This document shows positions 41,665 to 47,024 of a DNA stretch of 64,000 nt, piece by piece. The stretch covers positions 49,477 through 113,476 of the forward strand of contig NZ_JAIQXX010000010.1 of NCBI RefSeq assembly GCF_021887715.1, given 5' to 3'. This DNA is from Winogradskyella immobilis (lineage in GTDB: Bacteria > Bacteroidota > Bacteroidia > Flavobacteriales > Flavobacteriaceae). Within the stretch, counting starts at the first letter, position 1; every line of letters starts with the position of its first letter. Position numbers and translations under genes: made by a program. The notes beneath the pieces are model-generated. The model was not told where the DNA came from, did no database searches, and saw nothing but the letters and a program-made list of their open reading frames with translations.

Positions 41665-42747
41665 TTAACCGTATTCTTCTCCAAAATTAGCTTTTACATT
41701 CTGGAGTACTTTCTTTATATCTTGTTCTTTTGTTTTAGGAAAGATAAGTAAAACTTCATCCTTATCTACCACAATATAATCTTTAAGGCCATCGATAACC
41801 ACGAGTTTATCTTTGTTAGAACGAATCATATTTCCTGATGCGTCTTCTAAAAGTGTCTTTGCATTAACTACAGCATTATTAGTATCATCTTTATCTAACT
41901 TGTCGTATAAACTGCCCCAAGTTCCTAAATCGTTCCAATCAAAAGTAGCAGGAATCACATAGACATTATCACTTTTTTCCATCACCGCATAATCAATAGA
42001 TATATTTTCGGCCTTAGCATAATTCTCAGTTATAAAAGCACCTTCTTTTTCAGTATTATAGGCTTCATATCCGTTTTTAAAGTGTTGGAATAACTCAGGC
42101 TGATTCTTTTTAAATGCTTCTAAAACGCTTTTTACACTCCACATAAAAATACCTGCATTCCATAAAAAATTTCCTTGTTTAATAAACGATTTTGCCGTTT
42201 CATAATTTGGTTTTTCTCTGAATTGATTGACTTTTCTAATAGAATCACCTGAAGTATTATCATATTCTATATACCCATAACCTGTATTGGGAAATGTTGG
42301 CGTTATACCCAAAGTCATCAAAGCATTGTTTGACCCACAAAAATCAAAAGCTTGTTGCACATTATTAGTAAAAGCTTGTTCATCTTCAATCCAATGATCG
42401 CTAGGTGCAACAATCATAACGGCGTCAGGGTTTTCTTTTTGAATCTTTAATGCCGCATACAAAATACAAGGAGCAGTATTTCTCATGGCAGGTTCTAAAA
42501 CGACTTGCCGTTGTGTTATCTCTGGTAATTGTTCAAATACTAGATCGTTGTAACGTTCATTAGTGAGTATAAATATATTCTCTTTTGGAATCAATTGAGC
42601 TAAGCGATGAAACGTCTTTTGTATCAACGTATCTCCTGTACCCAGCATATCGTGAAACTGTTTCGGGAAATCTTGAGTACTAATCGGCCAAAATCGTGAG
42701 CCTACTCCTCCAGCCATTAAAATGGCGTAATAATTTTGGTTTTTCAT
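41665..42747 (-). CDS. manC: Mannose-1-phosphate guanylyltransferase
   Basis: A 360-residue nucleotidyltransferase that makes GDP-mannose from mannose-1-phosphate and GTP. The N-terminal signature AILMAGGVGSRFWPISTQDF with PKQF is clear, followed by VAPSDHWIED and GYGYIEY, and the late FREKPNYETAKSFI and NAGIFMW. The length shows it lacks the isomerase domain of bifunctional ManC proteins. GDP-mannose feeds surface glycans. It is upstream of DUF389 in the same direction. Confidence 0.93.
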   Translation of the reverse strand: MKNQNYYAILMAGGVGSRFWPISTQDFPKQFHDMLGTGDTLIQKTFHRLAQLIPKENIFILTNERYNDLVFEQLPEITQRQVVLEPAMRNTAPCILYAALKIQKENPDAVMIVAPSDHWIEDEQAFTNNVQQAFDFCGSNNALMTLGITPTFPNTGYGYIEYDNTSGDSIRKVNQFREKPNYETAKSFIKQGNFLWNAGIFMWSVKSVLEAFKKNQPELFQHFKNGYEAYNTEKEGAFITENYAKAENISIDYAVMEKSDNVYVIPATFDWNDLGTWGSLYDKLDKDDTNNAVVNAKTLLEDASGNMIRSNKDKLVVIDGLKDYIVVDKDEVLLIFPKTKEQDIKKVLQNVKANFGEEYG

Positions 42748-42760
42748 TTTATTATTAGTA

Positions 42761-42786
42761 ACCTTTCGACTGCGCTCAAGGTGACA
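42761..42786 (+). repeat. Covarying-stem hairpin repeat, copy D
   Basis: The stem ACCTT/AAGGT encloses the constant loop TCGACTGCGCTC and is followed by GACA. It lies in the 118-bp space between the SprT-like and guanylyltransferase genes. See the other copies at 44244, 44353, 45260 and 45701; each has a different but complementary stem. Confidence 0.85.
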
Positions 42787-42814
42787 TTTTCTATATTAAT
42801 TCATATATTTTTAT

Positions 42815-42853
42815 ATTCCTTCTCGATAGCTATCGGGATTCACAGGAATGACA
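42815..42853 (+). repeat. Compound palindromic repeat
   Basis: An outer stem ATTCCT/AGGAAT encloses the inner palindrome TCTCGATAGCTATCGGGA (42821-42838) and ends in TGACA. The inner part matches the palindromes at 7509 and 56528. The TGACA end is shared with the covarying-stem hairpins, one of which lies 29 bp to the left. Confidence 0.75.
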
Positions 42854-42865
42854 ATTGTTCTTTAT

Positions 42866-43501
42866 TTATGTGATATTCCCTTCTTCAAGGGAATGGAGTT
42901 GTTGTTTTAACAATTCCACCTCAGCATTAGGGTTGAAAAGATACAACTTTCCTGAATTTACCTCTATACATTCAAATCGCTTTCTACGTTTTTGCCCCTT
43001 TTTAAATATTCGTCCATTATATAACTTAAATGTTACACCTAAAGGCACTTCAAATACATAAGTTTTATCATTTGGCGCATCAAACTGCTTTAATGCTAGT
43101 GCTAATTGTGAATCCGTATCACTAGAAGCTTTTGGGTTTTTAAAATGCTCTGCCAAAAGCGGTAATAATTCATTAGGAAAAATTTCTGGATTTAAAAACG
43201 GTAGCATTAAATACTGAAAGGTTTGCTTCCATTCTTTACCATGGGGTTTTATAAATTTTCCGAAACGTTTATACGCTTCTAAATGCGCTATCTCATGAAC
43301 TAAAGTGATTAAAAAACGGTATTTATTCAAATTAGAATTTACTGTAATCTGATGCTTCCCATTAGGTAACTGTCTATAATCTCCATGACGGGTTTTACGT
43401 TCATTTTTTATTTTAACAACAAGATGTTCTTCATCTAATAGACTCGCAACAATATCTAAAGCCGTTTCGGGAATATAATTTTTAATCTGGTTTTGCATCA
43501 A
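42866..43501 (-). CDS. SprT-like zinc metalloprotease
   Basis: A 211-residue protein with the zincin motif HEIAH (His69, Glu70, His73) in LITLVHEIAHLEAYKRFG and a third His in KPHGKEW. The C-terminal ~80 residues form a small beta-rich domain with an unusual KKGQKRRKRFECIEVNSGK stretch. SprT/Spartan proteins are poorly understood in bacteria; eukaryotic relatives cut DNA-protein crosslinks. The start overlaps the stop of the SDR gene by 4 bp (ATGA), so the two are co-expressed. Confidence 0.88.
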   Translation of the reverse strand: MMQNQIKNYIPETALDIVASLLDEEHLVVKIKNERKTRHGDYRQLPNGKHQITVNSNLNKYRFLITLVHEIAHLEAYKRFGKFIKPHGKEWKQTFQYLMLPFLNPEIFPNELLPLLAEHFKNPKASSDTDSQLALALKQFDAPNDKTYVFEVPLGVTFKLYNGRIFKKGQKRRKRFECIEVNSGKLYLFNPNAEVELLKQQLHSLEEGNIT

Positions 43502-44181
43502 GGTGTAGAGTTCGATACTTGTAATAGTTTACCGTTATAATATTTACTTCCTGTTAAAGCAAAATCAGTAATATATTCTGCCATTTCTAAAGCCGTTGTT
43601 GGTGCTTGATAGCCTGGAAAAGCTTCTTCTAACATCTCTGTTTGTACAGCTCCTAAGGCTAGCACATTAAAATTTGGTCCGGTTTCTTTATATTCTTCGG
43701 CTAGTAATTCAGTTAATGTAATCACTGCTGCTTTGCTAGAACTATAAGCCGCCAATCCTGGGAATTTTAAACTGCCTTGCACACCTCCCATAGAGCTAAC
43801 AGTTACAACATGTCCTTCTTTTTTCATAAACGGAATAACAACACGTGTTAGTTCTGAAACGCCAAACACATTCGTTTTATAAACGGTTTCAAAATCTGAA
43901 ATTGTAGTCTCTGCAAACGGCTTGTTAAGTAATGCGCCTGCATTGTTAATTAAAACATCTACCTGTTGCCAATTCTCTTTAATAAAATTAGTGACTTGTT
44001 TGTAAACATTAGCTTCACATAAATCACACGAAAAAGTAATTACATTATCTAATTTCAAGTTTTTAATTGGTGTTTCGTTTCTAGATAAAGCTAATACTTG
44101 ATGACCTTGACTGGCAAATAATTTAACCATTTCAAAGCCTATACCTCGGCTTGTCCCTGTGATTATGATGTTTTTTGACAT
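43498..44181 (-). CDS. Short-chain dehydrogenase/reductase
   Basis: A 227-residue classical SDR. The NAD(P)-binding motif is GTSRGIGFEMVKLF, with NNAG at LINNAGALLNKPF. The catalytic Ser-Tyr-Lys is visible in VTVSSMGGVQG and AAYSSSKAAVITL. An Arg/basic residue after the second strand (LSRNE) suggests NADPH. The substrate is unknown. It is co-transcribed with the SprT-like gene. Confidence 0.9.
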   Translation of the reverse strand: MSKNIIITGTSRGIGFEMVKLFASQGHQVLALSRNETPIKNLKLDNVITFSCDLCEANVYKQVTNFIKENWQQVDVLINNAGALLNKPFAETTISDFETVYKTNVFGVSELTRVVIPFMKKEGHVVTVSSMGGVQGSLKFPGLAAYSSSKAAVITLTELLAEEYKETGPNFNVLALGAVQTEMLEEAFPGYQAPTTALEMAEYITDFALTGSKYYNGKLLQVSNSTP

Positions 44182-44206
44182 AATAGAAATTGATTATAAA
44201 AAGCCG

Positions 44207-44287
44207 TCAATTCGAGTATCCTGTCCCGATACAATTTTCTTTTATCTCAACTACGCTCGATATGACAGAAAATCACTCTGATTGACA
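44207..44287 (+). repeat. Mosaic of degenerate hairpin repeats, includes copy E
   Basis: The space between the SDR and pdhC genes is built of repeat pieces. Copy E (44244-44268) has stem TATC/GATA around TCAACTACGCTC, a variant of the standard loop, and ends TATGACA. To its left GTATCCTGTCCCGATAC (44217-44233 approximately) forms another hairpin. To its right AATCA-CTC-TGATT is followed by GACA (44271-44287). Confidence 0.6.
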
Positions 44288-44315
44288 TAAATTTTCAAAA
44301 TATTACTTAAAGATA

Positions 44316-44343
44316 AAATCCTACCACTAAGTAGGTAGGATTT
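44316..44343. terminator. Terminator downstream of pdhC
   Basis: AAATCCTAC and GTAGGATTT pair over 9 bp with a 10-nt loop. The stem lies 45 bp past the pdhC stop codon on the minus strand. A T-run is stronger on the plus strand, so activity for pdhC is likely but not certain. Confidence 0.6.
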
Positions 44344-44352
44344 ATTTTTATA

Positions 44353-44381
44353 GAGACTCTTCGACTGCGCTCAGAGTGACA
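44353..44381 (+). repeat. Covarying-stem hairpin repeat, copy C
   Basis: GAG is followed by stem ACTCT/AGAGT around loop TCGACTGCGCTC and then GACA. It ends 7 bp before the pdhC stop codon on the opposite strand, just downstream of the gene. Confidence 0.85.
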
Positions 44382-44387
44382 TTTTTA

Positions 44388-46019
44388 TTATACTAGCATC
44401 GTCACTGGATTCTCAATATATCCTTTTAAGGTTTGTAAAAATTGTGATCCCGTTGCGCCATCAACAGTACGATGATCGCAAGCCATTGTTAATTTCATGG
44501 TATGCCCTGCTACGACTTCGCCATTTTTAACTACTGGTTTTGCAACAATAGCTCCAACCGATAATATCGCAGAATTTGGCTGATTAATAATTGATGTAAA
44601 ACTCTCAATACCAAACATTCCTAAATTAGAAATGGTAAACGTACTGCCTTCCATTTCGTCTAAAGTCAATTTTTTATCTCTAGCTCTACCTGCATAATCT
44701 TTAACCGCAGCACCTATTTGAGGTAAACTCTGTTCATTTGCAAAACGTACCACTGGCACTACCAATCCGTCAGGTACCGCTACAGCAACACCAATATGTA
44801 CGTGATTGTTTAATTGCATGCGATCATCAAACCAACGTGAGTTAACTTGAGGATGTTGTTTTAATGCTAAAGCACAAGCTTTAACAATCATATCGTTATA
44901 CGATATTTTAATATCTGGTATAGAATTATATTGTGCACGGAATGCCATTGCATTTTCCATATCAAACTCTACATTCAAATAATAATGTGGCGCAGTAAAC
45001 TTAGATTTTACTAAGTTTTTAGCAATTGCTTTACGCATATTTGAATTTTGAACCTCATCAAAATCTTCTTGACCTGTTGGCACAAACTTACCAACAGAAG
45101 CTGTTGCTTGAGATGGTGTATAGTTTTCAATATCTCGTTTTACAATACGTCCGTTTTCACCAGAACCATTAACTTGATTTAAGTTAATGCCTTTTTCTTC
45201 AGCCATTTTTTTAGCTAATGGCGACACGTACAATCTTCCGTTAGAAGATGAAGTCGTTTGAGACGTCTCGACTGCGCTCGACGTGACAGGTGTAGTTTTC
45301 TTCTTAGTTTCTTTTGGTGCTTCAACTTTTTTAGGTGCTTCTGCAGGTTTTGAATCTCCACCAGAAATTTTAAAGTTTTTTGCTACAGCAGTTACATCTG
45401 TTCCTGCAGGACCAATAATAGCCAATAATGCATCTACTTTTGCAGATCCACCTTCTTGAATTCCGATATGTAACAATGTACCTTCATTAAAAGATTCAAA
45501 TTCCATTGTTGCTTTATCTGTTTCAATTTCAGCAAGAATATCTCCTTCTTCTACTACATCTCCTTCTTTTTTTAACCAAGTAGCTACAGTACCTTCTTCC
45601 ATCGTATCACTTAAACGTGGCATAGTAACTACAATGACTCCTTCTGGCAATTCCGCTTCCTTAGATGCTTCATCAACTACACTTGGAGTGACATCGTCTT
45701 GAGACTCCTCGACTGCGCTCGGAGTGACATCTTCTTTTTCTTCAGAAGTGTTACCATTTAGCAATCCAGAAATATCTTCTCCTTCTTCTCCTATAATAGC
45801 TAAGAGTTTATCAACTTCGGTGGTTTCGCCTTCTTGTACTCCTATATGAAGTAATGTTCCTTCGTTAAAAGATTCAAACTCCATCGTTGCTTTATCTGTT
45901 TCAATCTCAGCAAGAATATCTCCTTCTTCAATTTTATCGCCAACTTGTTTTAACCATGAAGCAACAGTACCTTCTTCCATGGTATCACTTAATCTTGGCA
46001 TATTTACTACTACTGCCAT
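44388..46019 (-). CDS. pdhC: Pyruvate dehydrogenase E2, dihydrolipoamide acetyltransferase
   Basis: A 543-residue E2 subunit. Two lipoyl domains (~1-80 and ~130-210) each carry EIETDKATMEFES with the lipoylated Lys. The peripheral subunit-binding domain is at ~262-298 (YVSPLAKKMAEEKGINL), and the catalytic domain ends with DHRTVDGATGSQFL. It forms the core that transfers acetyl groups to CoA. The linkers between domains, at residues ~97-116 and ~245-254, are encoded by copies of a hairpin repeat also found between genes (VTPSAVEES, VTSSAVETS). pdhA is 3 bp upstream; E1 beta and E3 genes are elsewhere. Confidence 0.96.
   Translation of the reverse strand: MAVVVNMPRLSDTMEEGTVASWLKQVGDKIEEGDILAEIETDKATMEFESFNEGTLLHIGVQEGETTEVDKLLAIIGEEGEDISGLLNGNTSEEKEDVTPSAVEESQDDVTPSVVDEASKEAELPEGVIVVTMPRLSDTMEEGTVATWLKKEGDVVEEGDILAEIETDKATMEFESFNEGTLLHIGIQEGGSAKVDALLAIIGPAGTDVTAVAKNFKISGGDSKPAEAPKKVEAPKETKKKTTPVTSSAVETSQTTSSSNGRLYVSPLAKKMAEEKGINLNQVNGSGENGRIVKRDIENYTPSQATASVGKFVPTGQEDFDEVQNSNMRKAIAKNLVKSKFTAPHYYLNVEFDMENAMAFRAQYNSIPDIKISYNDMIVKACALALKQHPQVNSRWFDDRMQLNNHVHIGVAVAVPDGLVVPVVRFANEQSLPQIGAAVKDYAGRARDKKLTLDEMEGSTFTISNLGMFGIESFTSIINQPNSAILSVGAIVAKPVVKNGEVVAGHTMKLTMACDHRTVDGATGSQFLQTLKGYIENPVTMLV
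45260..45288 (+). repeat. Covarying-stem hairpin repeat inside pdhC, copy B
   Basis: GAG then stem ACGTC/GACGT around TCGACTGCGCTC, followed by GACA. On the minus strand it encodes VTSSAVETSQ in the linker between the second lipoyl domain and the subunit-binding domain of PdhC. Confidence 0.85.
45672..45729 (+). repeat. Covarying-stem hairpin repeats inside pdhC, copies F and A
   Basis: Copy A (45701-45729) has GAG, stem ACTCC/GGAGT around TCGACTGCGCTC and GACA; it encodes VTPSAVEESQ. A decayed copy F starts at 45672, 37 bp away, with loop TCAACTACACTT and the GGAGTGACA end, and encodes VTPSVVDEAS. Both lie in the linker between the two lipoyl domains. Confidence 0.8.
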
Positions 46020-46022
46020 AAC

Positions 46023-47024
46023 TTATTTAATTTTATGATCAATAAATGGATAATCTTCTTGCTCATATACAGCATCATACATGACATTCTTTTCTGGATA
46101 CGGAGATTCTTCTGCAAATTTTTCGCATTCTTTCACTAAATCTTTAACCCTTTTGTCAATCGCTGCTATATCATCTTCCGTAGCATATTTCTTTTCTAGA
46201 AGAATATTTTTAACCTGAGTAATAGGGTCAATTTTCTTATATTCATTTACCTCTTCCTTAGTTCTATAATGTTGTGCATCTGACATAGAATGTCCTCTAT
46301 ATCTATATGTTTTTACTTCTAAAAATGAAGGACCTCCACCACTTCTTGCCCTAGAAATAGCTTCATCAAAAGCTTCAGCAACTTTAATAGGATTCATACC
46401 ATCAACTGGACCAGATGGCATTTCATAACCTCTTCCTAATTTCCATACATCTGTGTGGTTTGCTGTACGTTCTACTGAAGTTCCCATAGCATATCCATTA
46501 TTTTCACATACAAAAACCACTGGCAAATTCCATAACATAGCTAAATTAAAAGTTTCATGTAAAGAACCTTGTCTTGCTGCTCCATCTCCAAAACAACAAA
46601 TAGTAACAGCATCTTTATCGTGGTACTTGTCACCAAAAGCAATACCTGCTCCTAGAGGAATTTGACCTCCAACAATACCATGACCTCCAAAAAAACGATG
46701 TTCTTTAGAAAAAATATGCATCGATCCTCCTAAACCTTGTGATGTTCCTGTTGCTTTTCCATACAATTCTGCCATAACACGTTTTGGATCAACTCCCATA
46801 CCAATAGGCTGAACGTGATTACGGTATGCCGTAATCATTTTATCTTTGGTTAAATCCATGGCATGTAATGCACCAGCTAAAACCGCTTCTTGACCATTAT
46901 ACAAATGAAGAAAACCTCTTACTTTTTGTTGAATGTATACTGCTGCGAGTTTGTCTTCAAACTTTCTCCAGAAATACATATCTTCATACCACTTTAGGTA
47001 AACTTTTTTAGTTATTCTTTTCAT
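46023..47024 (-). CDS. pdhA: Pyruvate dehydrogenase E1 alpha subunit
   Basis: A 333-residue thiamine-diphosphate enzyme subunit. The TPP motif begins at GDGAARQGSLHETFNLA and ends near CENNGYAMGTS; the phosphorylation-loop counterpart is YRYRGHSMSDAQHYR. With E1 beta it decarboxylates pyruvate and acetylates the lipoyl groups of PdhC, encoded 3 bp downstream. A candidate -7 box TATTTTTG lies on the minus strand at 47083-47076, 52 bp upstream of the start. Confidence 0.96.
   Translation of the reverse strand: MKRITKKVYLKWYEDMYFWRKFEDKLAAVYIQQKVRGFLHLYNGQEAVLAGALHAMDLTKDKMITAYRNHVQPIGMGVDPKRVMAELYGKATGTSQGLGGSMHIFSKEHRFFGGHGIVGGQIPLGAGIAFGDKYHDKDAVTICCFGDGAARQGSLHETFNLAMLWNLPVVFVCENNGYAMGTSVERTANHTDVWKLGRGYEMPSGPVDGMNPIKVAEAFDEAISRARSGGGPSFLEVKTYRYRGHSMSDAQHYRTKEEVNEYKKIDPITQVKNILLEKKYATEDDIAAIDKRVKDLVKECEKFAEESPYPEKNVMYDAVYEQEDYPFIDHKIK

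What the first reader, a model, noticed from the sequence alone, without database searches (positions are those of the whole stretch)
42761..45729. Hairpin repeat family whose stem sequence changes in every copy but stays complementary
Five copies in 3 kb share the loop TCGACTGCGCTC (one variant TCAACTACGCTC) and the 3' tail TGACA. The four inner stem positions differ each time yet always pair: CCTT/AAGG (42761), TATC/GATA (44244), CTCT/AGAG (44353), CGTC/GACG (45260), CTCC/GGAG (45701). Compensatory change of all four base pairs with an invariant loop means selection, or a copying mechanism, preserves a folded structure rather than a sequence. All copies have the same orientation. This resembles REP/RAYT or other structured mobile repeats, but I see no transposase here.
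Basis: partly seen in the sequence, partly recalled or inferred. Interest (0 to 1): 0.78.

Follow-up and report, generated by a model that had tools for sequence, protein, structure and literature searches.

The report
Hairpin repeat with freely changing stem
A short DNA repeat found 72 times in this bacterium's genome keeps nearly one loop sequence while its paired stem differs between copies, and it is likely recognised by its folded single strand rather than by its stem sequence, probably during DNA replication.

Summary
The loop GAGCGCAGTCGA (minus strand) occurs 72 times in the genome at up to one mismatch; reversed control 1. Of 71 distinct copies, 55 have a perfect four-pair Watson-Crick stem; shuffling predicts 4.9. 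In three genomes, 105 footed copies carry 28 stems; pair 3 is almost uniform over G-C, A-T, C-G and T-A, and G·T is nearly absent. Copies in viral contigs, found by foot and loop alone, pair too (64 of 86 full stems). Three orthologous copies show compensated pairs; other sites are empty in a relative. In one complete genome copies follow the replication strand more than the gene strand; another shows no clear switch. Y1 (RAYT) genes do not track copy number. I read it as a REP-like element near the CGTC/TGTC-tagged repeats, recognised as single-stranded DNA by foot and loop, with an unidentified enzyme. It fails two features of that superfamily (stem and loop length), so it is a new variant, not a member. 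Pairing is shown; mechanism and loop fold are inferred, and computed folds are weak.

The parts
42758..42786 (-). copy, stem CCTT/AAGG, foot TGTC, loop GAGCGCAGTCGA, intergenic, downstream of the ORF 42866-43501
44239..44267 (-). copy, stem TATC/GATA, foot TGTC, loop GAGCGTAGTTGA (two changes), intergenic
44353..44381 (-). copy, stem CTCT/AGAG, 15 nt (loop to stop codon) downstream of the E2 gene
45260..45288 (-). copy, stem CGTC/GACG, in frame inside the E2 gene (linker near residue 247); site empty in relative G244
45701..45729 (-). copy, stem CTCC/GGAG, in frame inside the E2 gene (linker near residue 100); orthologous copy in G244 has CTCT/AGAG
45669..45693 (-). decayed neighbouring copy: foot and 5' arm TGTCACTCC intact, loop AAGTGTAGTTGA (3 mismatches), 3' arm not complementary
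   Evidence: sequence; read by eye
44388..46019 (-). gene that holds two copies: pyruvate dehydrogenase E2 (dihydrolipoamide acetyltransferase)

Best explanation
It is a family of short hairpin repeats, most with an unpaired 5' foot TGTC, with four to five stem pairs of largely free sequence and one nearly fixed 12-nt loop, and it is likely recognised as single-stranded DNA on the lagging-strand template by a protein that would read foot and loop but not the stem. Shown: the covarying stems, the free third pair, the near absence of G.T, the loop with one free base, inverted pairs, empty and filled orthologous sites, and a replication-strand bias in one complete genome. Inferred: that the loop folds into a compact cap (tandem G.A, G-C, C-G and a GNA triloop with one bulged T); that an HUH-like or other single-strand DNA enzyme encoded elsewhere moves or processes the element; and that constraint at the DNA level keeps each stem paired after insertion. 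Stems differ because only pairing is constrained, so compensated changes of one or two pairs accumulate in place, and new insertions bring other stems.
For: Pairing: 55 of 71 perfect four-pair stems against 4.9 shuffled; alignment covariation. DNA-level signature: 105 footed copies of three genomes are Watson-Crick at 102, 105, 101 and 100 of 105 for pairs 1-4, G.T 0, 0, 1 and 4 against 25.6, 19.0, 13.2 and 10.2 shuffled; pair 3 is G-C 27, A-T 27, C-G 25, T-A 22. A set chosen by foot and loop only: 64 of 86 full stems, 33 stem sequences, G.T 1, 3, 4 and 4 against 20.4, 12.5, 10.0 and 14.2. Loop: 15 of 23 single mismatches among 71 copies fall on position 6, the tip of the proposed triloop (p 2e-11). 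Compensation in place: E2 CTCC to CTCT, RNase R CACT to CGCT, L009 TCCT/AGGG to TGCT/AGCA. Insertion: an inverted pair in purL, a single copy in a mutase gene and copies between genes are absent in G244. Replication strand: G224 unpaired copies 7:31 and 27:7 (+:-) on either side of 1.85 Mb, p 3e-7; 45:9 with the positive-GC-skew half, 14:2 where genes point the other way; G244 17:5. Such a bias is reported for IS200/IS605 single-strand transposons (PMC5371812, passages).
Against: No enzyme found. In the own genome the gene-strand bias (33:6) is stronger than the replication-strand bias (32:17, p 0.04), with direction estimated from draft contigs; in G224 estimating direction per 20-kb stretch weakens 45:9 to 41:13. 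G157, one contig, shows no clear switch; its GC skew was not computed. Computed hairpin energies are weak. Pair 4 and the fifth pair are less consistent (59 and 30 of 71; the fifth is below its shuffled mean of 37.7). 68 of 173 exact-loop copies in the three genomes lack the foot classes counted, so the foot is not obligatory for the loop. The cap has no covariation support because the loop hardly varies.
Confidence: 0.5

Rival explanations
1. An RNA hairpin at mRNA 3' ends or between genes, bound by an RNA-binding protein or nuclease; pairing is selected in the transcript.
For: In the own genome (75 copies, four of them with two loop mismatches) 47 of 60 intergenic copies follow a same-strand gene, and 12 of 15 in-gene copies are sense; among unpaired intergenic copies my count from that list is 37:7 (p 5e-6).
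Against: G.T pairs are nearly absent; in G224 gene direction matters less (28:16) while 14 of 16 gene-opposed copies follow the replication strand; in 87 copies of viral contigs same:opposite:mixed is 34:41:12; the two sub-threshold Rfam matches in 42000-46500 do not touch a copy.
Confidence: 0.17
2. Hairpin-templated repair: polymerase template switching copies one arm onto the other (quasi-palindrome correction), so the arms stay complementary without any function.
For: Strict Watson-Crick pairing with arbitrary sequence is what copying would give; orthologous copies differ by whole base pairs.
Against: Does not explain the fixed loop and foot: footed copies with perfect stems have 0-1 loop mismatches in 27, 13 and 35 cases and 2-3 mismatches in 0, 2 and 1 in the own, G244 and G224 stretches, and three orthologous copies keep all 11 non-tip loop bases at about 80% flank identity (0.8^33 = 6e-4). 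It could act together with constraint on the loop.
Confidence: 0.13
3. A RAYT-mobilised REP, with the Y1 transposase domain fused to HemF as its enzyme.
For: The genome holds one Y1 domain with NHYH and YIHRNP motifs; one copy lies 20 nt downstream of that fused gene and another follows about 1 kb further.
Against: Of 51 related loci only 5 carry a copy in the stretch fetched; 22 of 60 genus genomes have the gene, median copies 21.5 with and 16 without, p 0.09; any Y1: 16 of 30 genomes with 20 or more copies and 12 of 30 with fewer, p 0.44; G244 has 46 exact copies and no Y1 match.
Confidence: 0.06
4. A host DNA signal used at replication forks (orientation guide, priming or repair site), fixed by host selection and not a mobile element.
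For: Strand bias with replication in G224, nearly fixed loop, conservation in place.
Against: Exact-loop copy number is 0-86 within one genus and four of 60 genomes have none; copies lie inside conserved enzymes and are missing at the same sites in relatives; a tailed phage contig carries several.
Confidence: 0.12

Closest known systems
CGTC-tagged REPs (Di Nocera et al. 2013, PMC3733652; abstract, sections 6, 14, 15, first part of 17, and search passages seen)
   Same: Unpaired CGTC/TGTC foot, A-T at the stem base, singletons and inverted dimers, mostly intergenic with some in-gene copies, no dedicated transposase reported; found in 5 phyla including Bacteroidetes. TGTC repeats of the canonical kind occur in the same stretches.
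   Different: The paper gives stems of 8-9 bp with A-T in the first two positions and loops of 4-5 nt; here 4-5 pairs, second pair free, loop of 12 nt, and stem sequence largely unrestricted.
GTAG REPs with RAYT/TnpA-REP transposases (Quentin et al. 2018, PMC6006769; abstract, sections 12 and 15, and search passages seen)
   Same: Short hairpin with a tetranucleotide foot, inverted pairs, dispersed copies; subclass 2.6 of Bacteroidetes is said to have 'atypical secondary structures'.
   Different: No GT[AG]G foot, no transposase gene flanked by the repeat in the loci tested, no co-occurrence with Y1 genes.
IS200/IS605 single-strand transposons (IS608, ISDra2)
   Same: Orientation follows replication (PMC5371812, passages); hairpin recognition on the lagging-strand template; IS608 hairpins carry an extrahelical T (recalled, no call).
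   Different: No tnpA or tnpB, about 30 bp long, several copies conserved in place.
Rickettsial palindromic elements (RPE-4, RPE-6)
   Same: In-frame insertion of palindromic repeats into proteins (PMC3733652, section 15).
   Different: Not compared by sequence here.

Membership tests
CGTC/TGTC-tagged REP superfamily | Unpaired CGTC or TGTC at the foot of the hairpin | tested here: met
   TGTC in 40 of 71 own copies; TGTC, CGTC, GGTC or TGTT in 105 of 173 exact-loop copies of three genomes
CGTC/TGTC-tagged REP superfamily | Stem of 8-9 bp, almost always A-T in the first two positions | tested here: not met
   4-5 pairs; first pair A-T in 67 of 105, next pair C-G 59, G-C 28, T-A 13
CGTC/TGTC-tagged REP superfamily | Loop of 4-5 nt | tested here: not met
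   12-nt loop; it would be a 3-nt loop if the proposed cap forms, which is not tested
CGTC/TGTC-tagged REP superfamily | Frequent dimers in opposite orientation | tested here: met
   8 convergent pairs less than 60 bp apart in the own genome by my count; 7 in G224. Head and tail naming not compared
CGTC/TGTC-tagged REP superfamily | No associated transposase | tested here: inconclusive
   No Y1 association; other enzyme classes not searched
REP/RAYT (GTAG REPs) | GT[AG]G foot | tested here: not met
   Foot consensus TGTC
REP/RAYT (GTAG REPs) | tnpA-REP gene flanked by cognate repeats | tested here: not met
   Copies in 5 of 51 P0001-type loci (up to 5 kb each side) and 0 of 30 PF01797 loci (about 1.5 kb each side); in the own genome one copy 20 nt downstream of the fused gene
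IS200/IS605 | Orientation follows replication | tested here: inconclusive
   Yes in G224, p 3e-7; 17:5 in G244; weak in the own genome; not seen in G157
IS200/IS605 | Encodes TnpA (Y1 transposase) | tested here: not met
   Element is about 30 bp; no Y1 match in 14 of 30 genomes with 20 or more copies
Rfam families | Match to a curated RNA family | tested here: not met
   Two sub-threshold matches in 42000-46500, neither on a copy

The most novel reading that the evidence does not exclude
A single-stranded-DNA element whose recognition code is 'foot plus mini-hairpin cap on any Watson-Crick stem': a DNA-aptamer-like mobile repeat, spread over a bacterial family and some phages, that moves at replication forks with an enzyme class not yet linked to REP elements.
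Probability: 0.3. Interest if true: 0.8.

Novelty: new variant of a known kind. Interest (0 to 1): 0.58.

Why it matters
Short CGTC/TGTC hairpin repeats were reported in 2013 to lack a dedicated transposase (PMC3733652), so what makes and keeps them is open. This family separates the constraints cleanly: a common foot, a nearly fixed loop with one free base, and a stem pair that is free in sequence but not in pairing. That makes a binding protein directly searchable with one oligonucleotide and matched stem variants, and the strand bias of one genome suggests the step at which to look.

Tried and rejected
Y1 transposase as the mobiliser: the single Y1 domain found (contig C8) is fused to HemF and does not track the repeat. 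A PF01797 survey of 199 family genomes found Y1 in 73; I did not cross-tabulate it with the repeat counts and used the 60 genus genomes instead. HMMs of two Y1 types built from fetched loci found nothing in the fetched viral, own, G244 and G224 stretches, which do not include contig C8; positive controls rang. Covariation inside the loop: no support either way, the loop hardly varies. A survey of feet before hairpins of 7 or more pairs in 1.12 Mb of G244 did not single out TGTC. Matches of about 140 bp between some loci are, as I read them, the start of paralogous genes and not a carrier element; other matches of 60-177 bp are around inverted pairs and were not aligned further. Literature: text searches for the loop, for a related loop, for flavobacterial REPs and for CGTC REPs listed no paper that I recognised as describing this family; hits other than PMC3733652, PMC6006769 and PMC5371812 were seen as listings only, and subscription papers are mostly absent from that library. 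The stability of GNA mini-hairpins is recalled (search listing only).
Full report
What is there. Read on the minus strand, each window copy is TGTC-A-NNNN-loop-N'N'N'N', with a closing T in four of five. Two lie in frame in the pyruvate dehydrogenase E2 gene and three between genes. A decayed copy sits beside the 45701 copy (read by eye).

Genome-wide. The genome (3.0 Mb, 82 contigs, 99.97% complete) has 72 loops at up to one mismatch, against 1 for the reversed control. Two copies with identical surroundings count once, leaving 71: pairs 1-4 are Watson-Crick in 69, 69, 65 and 59; 55 have all four, against 4.9 (largest 12) in 2000 shuffles. The alignment test agrees on pairing and covariation score, not on the number of pair types. 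The fifth pair (A-T) holds in 30 of 71, below its shuffled mean of 37.7.

The constraint looks like DNA, not RNA. I pooled exact-loop copies (loop position 6 free) of the fetched own, G244 and G224 stretches (61, 45 and 67) and kept the 105 with a TGTC, CGTC, GGTC or TGTT foot. They have 28 stem sequences. Pair 2 is always pyrimidine:purine and pair 1 in 102 of 105; pair 3 is G-C 27, A-T 27, C-G 25, T-A 22. G.T appears 0, 0, 1 and 4 times at pairs 1-4 where shuffling gives 25.6, 19.0, 13.2 and 10.2. The 68 copies dropped before that count have other sequences at the foot, such as GTTTA, GCCTGT or TTGGT; some have longer outer stems.

Independent check. A scan of viral contigs for foot and loop only, leaving the 5' arm and the whole 3' arm free, matched 89 stretches; 80 loci were returned and gave 86 distinct copies. 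64 have full four-pair stems, with 33 stem sequences; pairs 1-4 are Watson-Crick in 81, 75, 78 and 71; the loop tip is A 27, T 27, G 25, C 7. Copies show no preference for gene direction: same 34, opposite 41, mixed 12 of 87. Locus L367 is from a contractile-tailed phage by tape measure, sheath and baseplate matches: three copies lie between genes and against them, a fourth near the end of a minus-strand ORF, and two more are in locus L390 of the same contig. Some of the other contigs may be host DNA; this was not tested.

The loop. Of 71 own copies 48 have the exact loop and 23 one mismatch, 15 of them at position 6 (p 2e-11). I propose a cap: G.A and A.G, G-C, C-G and a G-N-A triloop with one bulged T. 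The stability of GNA mini-hairpins is recalled. Covariation cannot test the cap because its bases hardly vary. Standard energies for the five window copies are -2.9 to 0 kcal/mol as DNA, no better than shuffles, and as RNA likewise. Stability must then come from the cap, a protein, or neither.

In place and on the move. Against G244 (E2 85% identical) three copies are orthologous with alignable flanks and show compensated pairs: E2 CTCC/GGAG to CTCT/AGAG, RNase R CACT/AGTG to CGCT/AGCG, and L009 TCCT/AGGG to TGCT/AGCA, where pair 3 swaps and pair 4 goes from T.G to T-A (RNase R named). Others (among them L005, L013 twice, L027, L041 and leuS) lie at matching places with poorly alignable flanks and may be orthologous or independent. 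At several sites G244 has none: an inverted pair in purL, a copy in an acyl-CoA mutase gene, the second E2 copy, and copies between genes. 30 of 75 own copies had no two-sided match or were otherwise not placed in the G244 sequence at hand (which held about half of that genome), so presence and absence were not counted. The E2 loci of 30 of 60 genus genomes were fetched; 3 have a loop with two or more stem pairs inside the gene (own, L148, L168), and L148 has a second loop with a poor stem. Footed copies with a perfect stem fall at 0-1 loop mismatches (27, 13 and 35 in own, G244, G224) with 0, 2 and 1 at 2-3; G224 also has 6 at four mismatches. Decayed copies are thus rare, which argues for constraint in place or quick turnover.

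Replication strand. In G224 (one contig, 3.35 Mb) 72 unpaired copies split 7:31 and 27:7 at 1.85 Mb, a point chosen after seeing the list (p 3e-7). In the 20 stretches fetched, 54 unpaired copies are 45:9 with the positive-GC-skew strand of their half, 14:2 where the genes run the other way, and 28:16 by gene direction. Estimating direction per stretch gives 41:13. G244 gives 17:5. The own genome gives 32:17 (p 0.04) with direction estimated per draft contig, and a stronger gene bias, 33:6. G157 shows no clear switch; its GC skew was not computed. If the positive-skew strand is the leading strand (general knowledge; dnaA was not mapped), the element lies on the lagging-strand template, as for IS200/IS605 (PMC5371812, passages).

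Enzyme. The one Y1 domain found in this genome is the first part of a 505-residue protein whose second part is HemF, among genes that I read by eye as heme genes. HemF follows directly in 30 of 51 related loci and lies elsewhere in the locus in 5 more; 22 of 60 genus genomes have the gene, with HemF beside it in each. No copy lies in 46 of the 51 loci, though one does lie 20 nt after the gene in this genome. Any Y1: 16 of 30 genomes with at least 20 exact copies and 12 of 30 with fewer, p 0.44. Absence rests on E <= 0.001 in the two searches. Of the 14 copy-rich genomes without Y1, four are less than 95% complete (G199 83, G216 89, G219 78, G232 94) and ten are at 98% or more. An unrecognised relative cannot be excluded.

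Verdict. The pairing is real, general and strict. The element works like a REP and is nearest to the CGTC/TGTC-tagged repeats, canonical forms of which occur in the same stretches, but its short free stem and 12-nt loop fail two features reported for them. Single-strand recognition at forks by an unknown protein is my best reading, at about even odds.

Noticed in passing
L052:9441-10958 (-), contig C8 of the genome: A TnpA-REP-like Y1 domain (NHYH, YIHRNP) is fused in frame to the N-terminus of coproporphyrinogen III oxidase HemF. In 22 of 60 genus genomes the best match lies in an open frame of 490-532 residues with HemF following (two read in full). A possible domesticated transposase domain in heme synthesis.
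   Followed up: partly
L283 and L276, linker between the Y1 and HemF parts: The linker peptide (GFEKPAR-like) might encode a palindromic repeat of its own; guessed from the peptide, DNA not examined.
   Followed up: no
own genome, G244 and G224 stretches: Other TGTC-footed hairpins of the canonical kind (stem ATTCCTGC with a 4-nt loop; stem ATTCTGAA with loop CTTGT) coexist with the repeat.
   Followed up: partly
L064, L048, L036, L035, L019: Paralogous genes with a conserved start (MIKFFR...GKYFKYAIGEI type, read by eye), with several different hairpins between them in L064 and L048.
   Followed up: no
L367 and L390 (viral contig IMGVR_UViG_3300037488_003126): A contractile-tailed phage carries four plus two copies, all on the minus strand of their loci, mostly at gene junctions.
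   Followed up: partly
G224 positions 2554649-2567968: Nine copies in 13 kb, eight on the same strand: a local cluster like the one in the window.
   Followed up: no
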